Shown here piece after piece: positions 36,109 to 41,523 of a stretch of 41,523 nucleotides of DNA. This DNA is from Methanobacteriota archaeon. GTDB lineage: Archaea > Thermoplasmatota > Poseidoniia > Poseidoniales > Poseidoniaceae. The notes below the pieces were generated by a model, which saw only the letters and a program-made list of their open reading frames with translations, did not search any database and was not told the DNA's origin. The stretch's first letter is position 1. Each line of letters begins with the position of its first letter. The stretch lies in contig JABJMO010000012.1 of NCBI GenBank assembly GCA_018659375.1, positions 1 to 41,523 of the forward strand, in the 5' to 3' direction. The translations under genes and the position numbers were made by a program.

Positions 36109-39100
36109 TCATAGTCGGTTAAAACTACCATCAGTCATCATTTGCCAACGCACACCATCTGTTTGAACATAGATGGTTTGTCCAGTTGATTGATCGTATT
36201 GACCACCAGGTGGCAAGCCAGTATAATCTGCAACTGTGGTTGGTTGTGCAGGTGGTGCTGGTGCGGTAGCAACCGGTGGTGCTGGAGCAGTCATTGGTTG
36301 AGCTGGCTGTATTGGTTGTTGGTATGCCGGTTGTTGAGCCACTGGTTGAACTGGTTGTTGAACCACTGGCTGTTGATATGCCGGTTGTTGAACCATTTGT
36401 TGACCCATCTGCGGCATTCCAGCAACTGGTGCTTGAGACGTCATATTTGGTTGCTGAGTCCACATTTGTTGGGCGAAGTCTTTGTTATTGTCGCCATTTC
36501 TGCCTCGCATGATAACTACTGCAACCCCAATTACGACCCCGAGTACGCCAATTGTGCCACCAACAATTAATCCAGTATTGGATGACTTTGATTCGGACTC
36601 GCTTGTATCATCTTCTTTGTCCTGCCCACTAGCAATATTGGTCGCTGAAGAATCAGTCCCATCATGCAGACTGGTGTTGCCAGATACCACTGCAGAAGCA
36701 TCTGCAGCAACAGCAGTTCCATCTAGGGTAGATGACTCTGTAACAAAGGCCACAGATGCACTGTGTGCAAGTCCACCATCAAGTGAAACCACATTCAGAT
36801 TGATGGTGTATTCATTACGAGGAATTGAATCATCAACAGCAAAGGTCACGGTAAACGGTAAATCGCCATTCATGTCAATCGCGCCCCAAGTAATTACTGC
36901 AGAATCAATCAAATCTTGATTATAGGGTTCAACCAAAACGTCCAATGCACCACCAAGAGACAGGTCTAGACCATTATGTGCATTGATTACGCCACTAATT
37001 GCCATAGTGCCGTCAGCGATGATTTGTTCACGGTTTTCAATATCGAGTGAGAATTCAGGAATCGATGTCACTGTGAAGGTGATTTCATCAGAGTGTACTG
37101 TCGAGCCAGCCGTACCAGTCACAATAACCGTATAATCACCAGCAGACAAGTTACTAGGAATTGTCAAAGTTAGTACTGATAAAAATGGAGCTGAACCACT
37201 GGCAAAATCTAGTTGAGCGGCAACTCCATCAGGCACAGTCACTCCAATAGTCACATCAGCGCCTGAAAACCCATTTACTGGTTCAATAAAAATTGGAGTT
37301 GGAACAATCCATTCTACGCCTTGAGGAATTACAATCCATGGGTCAAGAGTTACGATATCAAAATCAGGATTATTATCAACGGTGAACGGAACAGAAATTA
37401 AGCGCTCCATTCCACTAGATTCACCAGTAATTGTCAAACTATATTCACCACTTGATAGATTCATAGTATCAACAATTACTGCACCGAGATCATCAACAGA
37501 AAGTTGCATTGAATCGTACATTATTGGTGCATTTTGAGCATTGATACTGGCACTTAGATTAACTGTGGAGGCAAATTCATTGAAACCAACCACATTGACC
37601 CAAGCAGCAAATGGTAAGCCCATTTTTGCTACATCATCAGGGACACTTGGTAACAGTGTGAAATCTGGAGTTGCCCAATCATCATTTCCTTGACGACCAG
37701 CAAATACTTGGATTCCAGTAGCGGTGACTGTCGATTGACCAATAGTAAATGATTGGTCGCCCAAATGCCGATAATTTAGCGGGATTGCGCCTGAATCTTC
37801 GATATCCATTGTCGATATTGTACAGCCACCAAGTTCAATTGACAAGGAAAATGTCCCAGTACCTTCAGCAGCTTCACTCCAAACTTTGTCCTTAACAAGT
37901 GGGAAGTTGATTTGATTCATTCCCGCAGCGTAAATCAAATCAGAGCGTATTACCGTTTCTTGGCTCATGTCGGCACCAGTCGGGATACAACCTAGATCAA
38001 TACCACCAAAGTCGCCGCCGCCGTTGTCGCCGCCACCACCATTGTTGTCACCACCACCATTGCTGTCGCCGCCGTTATCGCCGCCACCATTCTGCGCGTC
38101 TGAGCAGCCAAATGCATCTACTGAATCTCCAGCCATAGTATCAGGACAGTAATCATCGTCATCAATAACTCCATCTCCATCTGAATCGGTATTATCGCTT
38201 CCACCGTTTCCGTCACCATTGCCGTCACCATTACCATCACCGTCGCCTCCATCATCATCCGGGCACCCATCACTATCGGCATCATTTTCTGCGGTTGATG
38301 GCTCATTAGGGCAAGCATCGTTTGAGTCAGGGATTCCGTCTCCATCAGTGTCATCACTTCCACCACCGTTATTTCCATCATTGTCGCCGCCGTTATTTTG
38401 TGCTTCTGAACAGCCCCAGAAGTCAACTTCAGCGCCTAGTGCTGTACCTGGACAATCGTCGAAAAAGTCCTCAACGTCGTCACAATCCTCATCAGGTTCG
38501 CCATCTGATGTTGTGCAACTTCGAGCTGAAGTGCTCATTGCCCCAAAGGCGCCACCAGACATTTCAGTTGAAGAGGTCATAGTTAGATTTTCATGGACTA
38601 GTGCCAAATTACTCTTATCGAAACATGCAACTCCTGATTGCTCATCAATGAATTTGGTAGTCATACCCATGAAGTCCATGTTCAGGGTTGCCTTACCCTC
38701 AATACTTACGGTAAAGCAATTTTTGCCGCCAACATTATCCGAACCCGTTACCGTCATCTGGTGATATTCTTCGTAAGTCGCACCAAACATTTCCGGCATT
38801 GATACTGAGAAGTTCCAATAATCACCATCACTCCACACAGGGGCAGATTGCTTAGTGGTAGTTGCTGAGTTGGCAAATTGATATGATGTTAGACTTGATG
38901 TGTACATCAACTCATCTTTAGCATTGTATTGCTCGGATGTAGCGTACCAGCCAACTTCAGGTGAATACCAATCGACATTGTAACCGGCATCAATCTCCAG
39001 AACATATGCTCCACCACCAGCTTCAGTCATGGTCGCATTTATCGATACAGTATAGGCTCCACCCATTTCAGTTTCCTCTTCGGAAAGGAAAATTGTATCA

Positions 39101-39456
39101 CGAGTCTTGCTAGGATTACTGTCATAGAGGTGAGAATTGTTGTCATCCCATACCGACATTGAAACACCATCACCAGCACCGTGAGACAAAGTTAACAGCA
39201 TTGTCTGGCCACTTTCTAGCCAAACGGTAAACCAGTCGTGTCTGTCATCCCACATGTCAACTGCACCGCTAACCACATCTCCAGGATACACTTCTTGACC
39301 GGCATTATTGGCGTTATTTGGCTCGATTTCTTCAATCACCTCTACTCCAGCAGCCCCGCTAAATTGCGGTTCAGATGCCGTATCATCCAATGCTGATTGG
39401 GAAATCATTGGATGTAATGCTGCTAAAATTAGAATCACTAGTACTGCCTTACGCAT
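36109..39456 (-). CDS. PPC and thrombospondin-3 surface protein with Pro/Gln-rich cytoplasmic tail
   Basis: A 1115-residue protein, taking ATG 39456 as start because it begins an ideal signal peptide (MRKAVLVILILAALHPMISQ). A TATA-like TTATAC about 25 bp upstream suggests a leaderless transcript. The frame also opens at a TTG at 39510, which would bury the signal. Order: bacterial pre-peptidase C-terminal (PPC) domain (about 42-155, EIEPNNANNA to DSNPSKT); an unassigned beta domain; calcium-binding thrombospondin-type-3 repeats with Gly/Asn/Asp linkers (about 316-472); Ig-like segments; membrane helix (about 961-985); and a 130-residue cytoplasmic tail of Pro/Gln repeats ending in a compact motif, LPPGGQYD ... 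WQMMTDGSFNRL. No enzymatic motif was seen. The tail probably contacts a cytoplasmic partner. Confidence 0.85.
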   Translation of the reverse strand: MRKAVLVILILAALHPMISQSALDDTASEPQFSGAAGVEVIEEIEPNNANNAGQEVYPGDVVSGAVDMWDDRHDWFTVWLESGQTMLLTLSHGAGDGVSMSVWDDNNSHLYDSNPSKTRDTIFLSEEETEMGGAYTVSINATMTEAGGGAYVLEIDAGYNVDWYSPEVGWYATSEQYNAKDELMYTSSLTSYQFANSATTTKQSAPVWSDGDYWNFSVSMPEMFGATYEEYHQMTVTGSDNVGGKNCFTVSIEGKATLNMDFMGMTTKFIDEQSGVACFDKSNLALVHENLTMTSSTEMSGGAFGAMSTSARSCTTSDGEPDEDCDDVEDFFDDCPGTALGAEVDFWGCSEAQNNGGDNDGNNGGGSDDTDGDGIPDSNDACPNEPSTAENDADSDGCPDDDGGDGDGNGDGNGDGNGGSDNTDSDGDGVIDDDDYCPDTMAGDSVDAFGCSDAQNGGGDNGGDSNGGGDNNGGGGDNGGGDFGGIDLGCIPTGADMSQETVIRSDLIYAAGMNQINFPLVKDKVWSEAAEGTGTFSLSIELGGCTISTMDIEDSGAIPLNYRHLGDQSFTIGQSTVTATGIQVFAGRQGNDDWATPDFTLLPSVPDDVAKMGLPFAAWVNVVGFNEFASTVNLSASINAQNAPIMYDSMQLSVDDLGAVIVDTMNLSSGEYSLTITGESSGMERLISVPFTVDNNPDFDIVTLDPWIVIPQGVEWIVPTPIFIEPVNGFSGADVTIGVTVPDGVAAQLDFASGSAPFLSVLTLTIPSNLSAGDYTVIVTGTAGSTVHSDEITFTVTSIPEFSLDIENREQIIADGTMAISGVINAHNGLDLSLGGALDVLVEPYNQDLIDSAVITWGAIDMNGDLPFTVTFAVDDSIPRNEYTINLNVVSLDGGLAHSASVAFVTESSTLDGTAVAADASAVVSGNTSLHDGTDSSATNIASGQDKEDDTSESESKSSNTGLIVGGTIGVLGVVIGVAVVIMRGRNGDNNKDFAQQMWTQQPNMTSQAPVAGMPQMGQQMVQQPAYQQPVVQQPVQPVAQQPAYQQPIQPAQPMTAPAPPVATAPAPPAQPTTVADYTGLPPGGQYDQSTGQTIYVQTDGVRWQMMTDGSFNRL
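36296..36395 (-). repeat. Pro/Gln-rich coding repeat in the cytoplasmic tail
   Basis: The DNA repeats a loose GGTTGTTGATATGCC-like unit on the plus strand, encoding QQPAYQQP and VVQQPVQP blocks in the minus-strand protein. It is a degenerate tandem coding repeat of the cytoplasmic tail, likely to vary in length between strains. Confidence 0.6.
38011..38090 (-). repeat. Gly/Asp/Asn-rich tandem coding repeat
   Basis: Short GCC/ACC-type triplet-based repeats encode a GGDNGG/GGGDNN linker between thrombospondin-3 units of the minus-strand surface protein. It is low-complexity DNA and not a CRISPR array, as there are no spacers and no fixed repeat length. Confidence 0.6.
38201..38256 (-). repeat. 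12-bp tandem coding repeat (GDGN units)
   Basis: About three copies of a 12-bp unit similar to CGTCACCATTGC encode GDGNGDGNGDGN in the same protein. The period is a multiple of three, so unit gain or loss would keep the frame. Confidence 0.6.
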
Positions 39457-39549
39457 GAGGCTTGGTCTAGAATCAACAGTATAAGGCTTAGGTTGCGCTA
39501 ATGTAACCAAATAATTGGCCCAATAATCAAAGTATTAGTATTGAAGTAA

Positions 39550-41523
39550 TTACTTTTTCTCGGCTAATTCTTTGGCCTGCTTAGCCCACTCATCACGCTT
39601 GATACGGCCTGAGAAAAATTCGATTGCTTGATTAACTTCTTCTTCAATCTTAGGCGTCATATTACCTACTTGACCAAATGTGTATATGCCCAAAGCATTC
39701 AATTTTTCAGCAATAAAAGGGCCTATTCCTTTGATTACCTGCAAGTCGTCTTGCTCATCAATAGTGGCAACTCCAAGCGTGGCAAAGTCAATCGTCTTGG
39801 CACGAGCTCTTACCCGTGCTAATTCTTCTAACTTCTTGGCTCTCAACTTTTCTGTTTCTGCATCTGCTTTGACTTTTGCTTCTGCTTTTGATTCTGCCTT
39901 TGCTCTTGACTTGGCTTCTGACTCTGCCTCTACAGTGGCTTTCTCGCGTTCAGATTCGAGTTTCTCCTGTTGCATGAGGTATTCAGGGTCCGGATTTACC
40001 TTAACGTCCCAAATCAAGTATACCGAATTTCTTCCAATCTTGATAGTACCTTGGAATTCACCACCGCCCAGAGTCGGCTCTAAACTGTCATCAAAGATTA
40101 GTTGGAATTTAATCACTCCTTCCTCATCAGCCTCAAACATCCTTACTTCTTCATTGCCGTATGTCAAGTCTGCCATTGTGAACTTGTGCCCCGCTTGTTG
40201 GTCTAAGTAATCAATAGATTGTATTTTCAAGCCTGGAGTGATGTTGGTAATGGTAATTAATTCCTCGCTGTAGATTGTATCACCAGGATTGACATCATTG
40301 GCTGGCGTTAGGATGAACGGGTTGTCCTTGGTCCCTTCACCTTCAGCGAACTTAGGCTTTGAAGTAGTATTTTCTGGTTCAGCATCATCAATTACTTGCT
40401 TATTTCCTGGTATAAATATAACGAACAAGAGTAACAACAGCAGCAGAATCAACGGCAAACAGATGTAACCCCAAGCCATTATACCGCTTTCATCTTTATC
40501 ATCATCAGTATCTTGTGAATCTATAACTTCTTCAATGACACTAATTGTGATGTTAAACGATTGACCGTGAGCAGAATTATTTGCCCAAATTGTGAACTGT
40601 GTAGCCTCCATTGCTTTAGTTGGTGTACCTGTTATACTTCCATCAGGGTGTGCGTCTCTGGCTGGACTCCATCCAAAGATTAGACCTGTAGGCAGTTCGC
40701 TACTAATTTCCCAAGTAGCGACATCACCTAGGCCAGCAACAGTTGGTAATTGCACTGCTATTTCTTTACCTATGGTAAGGGTCAATGTGTCTGAAGGATA
40801 TGTCATGGTAAATGGTAAGTCAAGGATTGTATCAAGTGAGTCACAGATTCCATCGCCGTCCTCATCTCCTGGAACACTGTTTTGATCGGTACTATCTGTT
40901 CCACAATCTGCTTCCATTGCGTCTAACCAGGTGTCGTTGTCGTCATCAAGGTCTTCGACAAGAGGTGGCGTACTAGTGGACTGTCCGGTCAAAGTATCTG
41001 GCATTCCGTCACCATCGCGGTCAATGGAACCTGCAGAATCGAACGGGAACGCATCTGGTCCAACAGAACAACCGCCATTGGCAGGGACTTCAGGCCCATC
41101 ACAAACACCATCACCATCGCTATCAGCATTGATTGAATCAGTTCCAGTATTGTTTTGGTCAACGTAAGTTGATGAGTTGGTTTCCACATCATTGAGTAGC
41201 CCATCACCATCAATATCTTCATCAAGTTCATCACAAATGGAATCGCCGTCAAGGTCTGTTATCAATGAATTAGCATCAAGTGGGTTGGTTGCACAATTGA
41301 CTTCTTCAGCATCGCTAAAGCCGTCTGCGTCATCATCCAAGTCTTCGACTAAGCCACCTAATGGATTGTAATCAAGTGGTAATTGATTTGGCATTCCATC
41401 CGAGTCTGAATCATCAAGAACTCCTATTTGGATTACCATCACTTCATTGAACAAACTGTTGTTAGCATAAATGGTGAAGTTAGTCAACTGAATATCATCA
41501 GTTGGCGTTCCCCAAATTGTTCC
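39550..41523 (-). CDS. Thrombospondin-3 ectodomain joined through a membrane helix to coiled coil and HhH domain (5' truncated)
   Basis: The frame is open to the window edge, so the true start lies beyond 41523. Visible order: the end of an Ig-like putative repeat (GTPTDDIQLTNFTIYANNS); calcium-binding thrombospondin-3 repeats (about 41420-40830, many D-x-D-x-DG); another He_PIG-like Ig repeat (40800-40540); a membrane helix of leucines (40480-40400); a small beta domain (about 40370-40000); a charged coiled coil rich in Ala/Glu/Lys (39990-39800); and a C-terminal helix-hairpin-helix, VIKGIGPFIAEKLNALGI, followed by YTFGQVGN (about 39745-39665). HhH units of this type (COG3743-like) are usually linked to nucleic-acid or protein binding. 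With the ectodomain outside, the coiled coil and HhH would be cytoplasmic. Confidence 0.85.
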   Translation of the reverse strand, partial: GTIWGTPTDDIQLTNFTIYANNSLFNEVMVIQIGVLDDSDSDGMPNQLPLDYNPLGGLVEDLDDDADGFSDAEEVNCATNPLDANSLITDLDGDSICDELDEDIDGDGLLNDVETNSSTYVDQNNTGTDSINADSDGDGVCDGPEVPANGGCSVGPDAFPFDSAGSIDRDGDGMPDTLTGQSTSTPPLVEDLDDDNDTWLDAMEADCGTDSTDQNSVPGDEDGDGICDSLDTILDLPFTMTYPSDTLTLTIGKEIAVQLPTVAGLGDVATWEISSELPTGLIFGWSPARDAHPDGSITGTPTKAMEATQFTIWANNSAHGQSFNITISVIEEVIDSQDTDDDKDESGIMAWGYICLPLILLLLLLLFVIFIPGNKQVIDDAEPENTTSKPKFAEGEGTKDNPFILTPANDVNPGDTIYSEELITITNITPGLKIQSIDYLDQQAGHKFTMADLTYGNEEVRMFEADEEGVIKFQLIFDDSLEPTLGGGEFQGTIKIGRNSVYLIWDVKVNPDPEYLMQQEKLESEREKATVEAESEAKSRAKAESKAEAKVKADAETEKLRAKKLEELARVRARAKTIDFATLGVATIDEQDDLQVIKGIGPFIAEKLNALGIYTFGQVGNMTPKIEEEVNQAIEFFSGRIKRDEWAKQAKELAEKK

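What the first reader, a model, noticed from the sequence alone, without database searches (positions are those of the whole stretch)
39550..41523. External calcium-binding repeats linked to a cytoplasmic helix-hairpin-helix domain
One chain carries thrombospondin-3 and Ig-like repeats, a membrane helix, a coiled coil and a C-terminal HhH domain (VIKGIGPFIAEKLNALGI). HhH domains commonly bind nucleic acid. A surface protein whose tail could reach DNA, RNA or a cytoplasmic HhH partner suggests envelope tethering of the nucleoid or ribosomes, or a signalling scaffold.
Basis: partly seen in the sequence, partly recalled or inferred. Interest (0 to 1): 0.6.

Follow-up and report, generated by a model that had tools for sequence, protein, structure and literature searches.

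The report
Giant archaeal surface protein, portable HhH tail
A very large surface protein of a marine archaeon ends inside the cell in a small helix-hairpin-helix domain that relatives also carry on ribosomal proteins, respiratory complex I and, in bacteria, storage-granule proteins; the one member studied experimentally is reported to hold granules to the DNA, so the tail may tie the cell surface to the chromosome or to a shared partner.

Summary
The gene is on the minus strand (657 aa, stop at 39550) and its 5' end runs off the contig of a Poseidoniaceae (marine group II archaea) genome. It encodes TSP3 calcium motifs and Ig-like repeats, one strong membrane helix, a PapD/ASH-like beta domain, a K/E/A coiled coil and a C-terminal HhH domain. 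The closest long orthologue (83% identical) is about 3,650 aa with 17 Ig domains and an RCC1 propeller, and a signal segment lies just upstream in another frame. Composition puts the HhH inside the cell: 46 homologues average 2.1% K+R and 1.4% Cys outside, 16.9% and 0.0% inside. The HhH belongs to a family whose bacterial members sit on NuoE, bL21, uS2, the phasin PhaH and reaction-centre protein-O. In Poseidoniia the same tail also sits on NuoI or NuoJ within nuo operons and on the only eL21 gene of three genomes. PhaH, the one member with a reported function, tethers PHB granules to the nucleoid.

The parts
39550..41523 (-). gene for the surface protein, 657 aa, 5' end missing at the contig end
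   Evidence: open frame; orthologues 83-88% identical over all 657 aa
40534..41523 (-). extracellular part: end of an Ig-like (He_PIG type) repeat, TSP3-like Asp-rich calcium motifs (about 40819-41412), then another Ig-like repeat (about 40534-40860)
   Evidence: TSP3_bac E 2.4e-5; He_PIG in orthologue; boundaries approximate
40414..40488 (-). single transmembrane helix, residues about 346-370
   Evidence: mean hydropathy 3.24; helix in AF2 model
39997..40368 (-). cytoplasmic beta-sandwich domain, PapD/ASH-like
   Evidence: AF2 strands; Foldseek HYDIN 7.7e-6, CEP192 2e-3
39799..39987 (-). K/E/A-rich coiled coil
   Evidence: AF2 helices at model residues 173-200 and 210-235
39559..39798 (-). 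HhH domain of the PhaH / protein-O / NuoE-tail family; hairpin VIKGIGPFIAEKLNALGI at 39685-39738, family signature GR..RD.W..QA after it
36109..39510 (-). next gene downstream, 1133-aa TSP3 surface protein with its own membrane helix; neighbour conserved in five other genomes
   Evidence: tblastn synteny in L054, L056, L053/L160, L055/L159, L117

Best explanation
The gene encodes a giant, calcium-binding, adhesin-like surface protein held by one membrane helix. Its cytoplasmic tail is a spacer (beta domain plus coiled coil) ending in a portable HhH module that recurs on ribosomal proteins, complex I subunits and, in bacteria, granule proteins. Most likely the module gives non-specific attachment to the nucleoid, as reported for PhaH, so that the surface protein anchors the envelope to chromosomal DNA. 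Shown here: the anatomy, the inside position of the HhH (by composition and by the location of all other carriers), membership in the PhaH/NuoE-tail family, and the repeated re-use of the module. Inferred: DNA as the target, and tethering as the purpose.
For: HhH core alone matches PhasinPhaH at 2.1e-10; that model rings in the Caulobacter control genome above its cut-off, as it should. PhaH is reported to bind DNA nonspecifically through its HhH and to spread PHB granules on the nucleoid (PMC13052382; primary paper 10.1111/mmi.15124 not held). Weak sequence matches to DNA polymerase beta and IV HhH, and the GIGP hairpin is kept in most members. In a multi-membrane carrier a C-terminal SAP domain, a DNA-binding type, stands where the orthologue has a second HhH (L192 against L104). 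Inside position: 46 proteins, K+R 2.1% and Cys 1.4% before the helix, 16.9% and 0.0% after it. N-terminal signal segments in full-length homologues and upstream of the direct orthologue. The coiled-coil spacer fits a tether.
Against: No DNA binding was tested. The 61-62-residue core is net -2 in the window protein, 0 in a PhaH-like bacterial protein, -7 in another. The most invariant residues (L19, G24, W71, Q74, A75) include only one of the two hairpin glycines; the second is 74%. In one branch of Poseidoniales carriers the hairpin reads GID while the rest is kept. Partners such as NuoI/J/E and a reaction centre have no obvious need for DNA. Net charge flanking the helix gives only a weak positive-inside signal, and sequons are enriched on both sides, so these do not help topology.
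Confidence: 0.42

Rival explanations
1. The HhH is a protein-docking module: it binds itself or one common cytoplasmic partner and so clusters or positions unlike machines (surface proteins, complex I, ribosomes, granules), mostly at the inner face of the membrane. No nucleic acid is involved.
For: Re-use on complex I on different subunits (NuoI in L100, L165, L167, L168, L173; NuoJ in L079, L086, L091, L094, L096, L179; NuoE in Henriciella L217), on reaction-centre protein-O, on eL21, bL21, uS2, bL27, phasins. NuoJ tails sit among surface-protein tails in the domain tree. Acidic net charge; invariant W/Q/A outside the hairpin. Tandem and triple copies are common in surface proteins.
Against: The window's genome has a single detectable copy, so contacts between HhH tails of different proteins would need the missing part of the assembly; only self-association or a partner of another kind remains. 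The tandem model matched no known assembly. PhaH is reported as a DNA binder.
Confidence: 0.37
2. The HhH binds rRNA or ribosomes, so that the surface protein or complex I recruits translating ribosomes to the membrane.
For: Separate fusions to ribosomal proteins in both domains of life: eL21 in three genomes of one Poseidoniales genus, where it is the only eL21 gene, bL21 and bL27 in bacteria, uS2 and bL21 models in NCBIfam.
Against: Ribosomal carriers already sit on the ribosome, so the added tail more likely reaches out to something else. The other genomes checked, the window's among them, have a plain eL21.
Confidence: 0.12
3. The HhH is a self-stabilising C-terminal cap spread by recombination, without a binding partner.
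For: Short, portable, patchy between genera; carriers of many unrelated kinds.
Against: Residues are invariant between archaea, Alphaproteobacteria and Bacteroidota, more than a mere cap would need. phaH deletion is reported to disturb granule placement (PMC13052382).
Confidence: 0.06

Closest known systems
Phasin PhaH of Caulobacter crescentus (NCBIfam NF045508)
   Same: C-terminal HhH of the same family; proposed single-protein tether between a cell body and the nucleoid
   Different: PhaH is a small soluble granule protein; here the HhH ends a giant transmembrane surface protein of an archaeon, often in tandem copies
Protein-O of the Dinoroseobacter shibae RC-LH1 complex (PDB 8yy9)
   Same: membrane part, long flexible linker, C-terminal HhH (37-44% identity for bacterial rows)
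   Different: two short transmembrane helices in the photosynthetic core, no large outside domain; its HhH was not resolved and its function is called obscure (PMC12079452)
HhH extensions of NuoE, bL21 and uS2 (NCBIfam PRK12373, PRK12278, PRK12311)
   Same: same HhH core (E 1e-17 to 1e-11)
   Different: cytoplasmic complex I or ribosome subunits; in archaea we find it on NuoI, NuoJ and eL21 instead
Thrombospondin-type surface proteins of Ca. Poseidoniales (PMC6461757)
   Same: TSP3 repeats, proposed role in adhesion
   Different: the passages found in that paper count thrombospondin genes and do not describe the cytoplasmic HhH tail; no held paper mentions both HhH and marine group II
HhH of DNA polymerase beta / Y-family polymerases
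   Same: hairpin of the GIGP type followed by a short helix
   Different: only marginal sequence matches (E 0.01-0.09); matches do not extend over the GR..RD.W..QA part

Membership tests
PhaH / NuoE-tail / protein-O HhH family (COG3743 of the literature) | HhH core with GR..R(D/E).W..QA signature | tested here: met
   NCBIfam matches with the 80-aa core alone, phmmer to 8yy9 and 9wqv, invariant columns
PhaH / NuoE-tail / protein-O HhH family (COG3743 of the literature) | match to the COG3743 model itself | not testable with these tools
PhaH / NuoE-tail / protein-O HhH family (COG3743 of the literature) | C-terminal position on a cytoplasmic protein or tail | tested here: met
phasin PhaH (whole protein) | granule-binding N-terminal part and score over 250 bits | tested here: not met
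   48.9 bits, C-terminal end of the model only
DNA-binding HhH | both hairpin glycines (GxG) | tested here: met
   KGIGP in the window protein; second glycine 74% across the family
DNA-binding HhH | binds DNA | not testable with these tools
   needs a binding assay; the domain is net acidic
single-pass surface protein with cytoplasmic tail | N-terminal signal segment and one later membrane helix | tested here: met
   met in homologues L036, L037, L040, L093, L106, L184 and, across a frame break, in the orthologue in L033; the window gene's own N-terminus is missing
thrombospondin type 3 repeat proteins | TSP3 motifs over the Pfam cut-off | tested here: inconclusive
   24.5 against 25 bits in the fragment; 29.6 and 32.9 bits in homologues

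The most novel reading that the evidence does not exclude
Archaea and bacteria share one portable HhH tail that physically links the envelope, respiratory complex I, ribosomes and storage granules to a common scaffold, probably the nucleoid; in Poseidoniia giant surface proteins use it as a direct surface-to-chromosome tether.
Probability: 0.22. Interest if true: 0.88.

Novelty: new variant of a known kind. Interest (0 to 1): 0.62.

Why it matters
How the archaeal envelope is connected to the chromosome is open, especially in the uncultured marine group II. This protein is a concrete candidate for such a link. More broadly, a domain whose function was called obscure in bacterial photosynthesis and complex I turns out to have been fused to ribosomal proteins and to complex I in both domains of life, on different subunits. 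That makes one small, testable question (what does this HhH bind?) informative for many systems at once.

Tried and rejected
Opposite topology (HhH outside): rejected on composition, signal segments, and the cytoplasmic place of all other carriers. Low-complexity artefact (the coil inflating the family matches): rejected, the core alone still matches. The positive-inside rule and N-glycosylation sequons were tried and were not decisive. Foldseek with the tandem HhH model found nothing significant; Foldseek with the single-tail model found only the beta domain. Plasmid records gave only weak alphaproteobacterial matches. The SAP survey showed SAP domains are common in these genomes, 4-9 each, so the HhH/SAP exchange in one carrier is suggestive only. 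A literature search for HhH with marine group II found nothing. The primary PhaH paper could not be read, so its result is taken from two later papers. The domain tree has too few columns to order the fusions. The profile search of the PDB has protein-O among its own rows and is partly circular; one search is the independent one.

Full report
WHAT IS THERE. The window is contig C28 of a 1.9-Mb, 90.65% complete genome. Close relatives are named Candidatus Poseidoniaceae / Poseidoniales, marine group II archaea. The finding lies on the minus strand: an open frame of 657 codons from the contig end at 41523 to the stop at 39550. Its 5' end is therefore missing. Pfam sees TSP3_bac repeats just under the curated cut-off and little else. 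Hydropathy and an AlphaFold2 model of the last 317 residues (20-row alignment, mean pLDDT 74.5) show one long hydrophobic helix, a beta-sandwich, two long helices rich in K, E and A, and a compact helical C-terminus. The beta-sandwich resembles PapD/ASH domains by fold (HYDIN, E 8e-6). A second model, of a tandem HhH from a relative, reached mean pLDDT 82.7 and pTM 0.64, but Foldseek found no convincing match.

FULL-LENGTH RELATIVES. A search of 59 genomes with the membrane-to-C-terminus part found it in 28, on frames of up to 6,547 codons. A scan of one genome per species found 67 loci, nearly all Poseidoniales. The nearest long relative, in G020, is 83% identical over the whole 657 aa; its frame is 3,649 codons long, with 17 He_PIG Ig domains, an RCC1 propeller and a TSP3 repeat. 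That frame begins without a signal, but just upstream in another frame lies MSLTYDANSRTSLGLKSLKSLLLAVLMVSMSLSVGLVE, a typical signal segment, so the gene has a frame break near its start (real or an assembly error). Other complete frames (L036 6,089, L037 5,946, L184 4,329, L106 2,931, L040 2,796 and L093 1,582 codons, counted from stop to stop) each have an N-terminal hydrophobic segment and one strong later membrane helix; two have an extra borderline segment in the outside part. L182 (1,261) and L187 (3,364, open at its 5' end) also show an N-terminal hydrophobic segment.

TOPOLOGY. In 46 surface homologues the part before the helix has 0.9% K, 1.2% R, 11.3% D and 1.4% Cys; the part after it has 13.0% K, 3.9% R and no Cys. 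Together with the signal segments and the cytoplasmic place of the other proteins that carry the domain (ribosomal proteins, NuoI, NuoE, phasins), this supports repeats outside and HhH inside. The flanking-charge rule is only weak (0.61 against 0.85 K+R per 15 residues), and sequons are over-represented on both sides, so neither was used.

THE HhH FAMILY. The last 80 residues alone match NCBIfam models of NuoE (1e-17), bL21 (2e-12), uS2 (5e-12) and phasin PhaH (2e-10), always in their C-terminal ends. The single sequence also matches protein-O of the Dinoroseobacter RC-LH1 complex (8yy9, 2e-12) and a chain named 41-kDa complex I subunit in 9wqv. Over 17 diverse rows the invariant positions are L19, I22, G24, G37, Q43, G64, R65, R68, W71, Q74 and A75; over 150 domains in 50 clusters L19, G24 and W71 remain at 100%, Q74 at 98%, and the second hairpin glycine at 74%. 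The signature therefore extends well beyond the hairpin.

OTHER CARRIERS IN ARCHAEA. Within Poseidoniia the same tail is found on NuoI (L100, L165, L167, L168, L173) or NuoJ (L079, L086, L091, L094, L096, L179), inside nuo operons with the expected neighbours where these were read (L079, L086, L100). It is on ribosomal protein eL21 in three genomes of one genus (Pfam Ribosomal_L21e 4e-31 and 1e-31), where it is the only eL21 gene; four other genomes checked, including the window's, have a plain eL21. It is also on HEAT-repeat proteins of another family of the class (L162), on UPF0227 hydrolases and coiled-coil proteins (L153, L154, L158), and on a multi-membrane protein with EF-hands (L104, L192). 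In L192 the end of the chain is a SAP domain (8.8e-9), where L104 has a second HhH. The window's own genome holds just one detectable copy, this gene. In a sample of 292 genomes of the phylum, 41 Poseidoniia genomes carry it (one of them by a weak match to a cut-off gene), and outside the class only two genomes have matches below 1e-10. Several genera have none in the sample, so it is probably not essential.

CARRIERS IN BACTERIA. One Henriciella genome has four: a PhaH-like phasin, bL21, NuoE and a membrane coiled-coil protein. A Phaeodactylibacter has a PhaE-like PHA synthase subunit and a bL27 with a more distant HhH. Two Bacteroidota MAGs have membrane helix plus coiled coil plus HhH. Fusion to ribosomal proteins (eL21 against bL21, different proteins by Pfam) and to complex I (NuoI/NuoJ against NuoE) thus seems to have happened separately in the two domains. 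The domain tree is too short to order these events, but starred branches force at least three changes of the NuoJ label, with NuoJ tails lying among surface-protein tails; some rows labelled 'surface' there are truncated and may be NuoJ, so that count is an upper reading.

HOW IT MAY WORK. One member has a reported function. Later papers citing Salinas et al. 2023 state that PhaH binds PHB granules by its N-terminus and DNA nonspecifically by its HhH, spreading granules along the nucleoid (PMC13052382; PMC12028471). The primary paper was not available. The protein-O paper calls the domain's function obscure (PMC12079452). Taking PhaH as guide, the surface protein would be a tether from envelope to chromosome, with the coil as spacer. 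Against this, the domain is net acidic (-2), and its fusion partners suggest a general docking module. I give 0.42 to the nucleoid tether, 0.37 to protein docking and 0.12 to ribosome binding.

SURROUNDINGS. The next gene downstream (36109-39510, minus) is another TSP3 surface protein with a membrane helix and a proline/glutamine linker; the pair is conserved, some 40 bases apart, in five other genomes. A joint role at the surface is likely but untested.

VERDICT. The function is a reasoned hypothesis, not a demonstration. Adhesion by thrombospondin-type proteins in this group was already proposed (PMC6461757); the shared inner tail, as far as the held literature shows, was not.

Noticed in passing
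window 36109-39510, minus strand: 1133-aa TSP3 surface protein directly downstream, with a membrane helix, a P/Q-rich linker and a short C-terminal motif GLPPGGQYDQSTGQTIYVQTDGVRWQMMTDGSFNRL; pair conserved in five other genomes.
   Followed up: partly
L151:5098-5772, L176:776-1507, L177:1033-1749: The only eL21 ribosomal protein gene of three Poseidoniales genomes carries the HhH tail; bacteria did the same with bL21 and bL27.
   Followed up: yes
L100:8936-10291; L086:9272-10303; L079:4371-5189: Within archaeal nuo operons the HhH tail sits on NuoI in some species and on NuoJ in others; the NuoJ tail in L086 also has an EF-hand pair before it.
   Followed up: partly
L192:2215-4656 against L104:7673-10261: A multi-membrane protein ends in HhH plus a SAP domain in one species and in two HhH domains in another.
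   Followed up: partly
22 Poseidoniales genomes: SAP domains (PF02037) occur 4-9 times per genome but in none of 14 control genomes.
   Followed up: no
L033:7850-8050: Frame break near the start of the orthologous giant gene in G020, separating the signal segment from the 3649-codon frame; could be an assembly error.
   Followed up: partly
L095 (Rhodobiaceae bin), L103 (Flavobacteriaceae bin): Bacterial MAGs holding contigs with Poseidoniales-type giant surface genes, most likely binning contamination.
   Followed up: no
L093:5639-10384 and L049:6541-8925: Two giants end, after the HhH, in a conserved acidic motif ETF(D/E)DVDWE.
   Followed up: no
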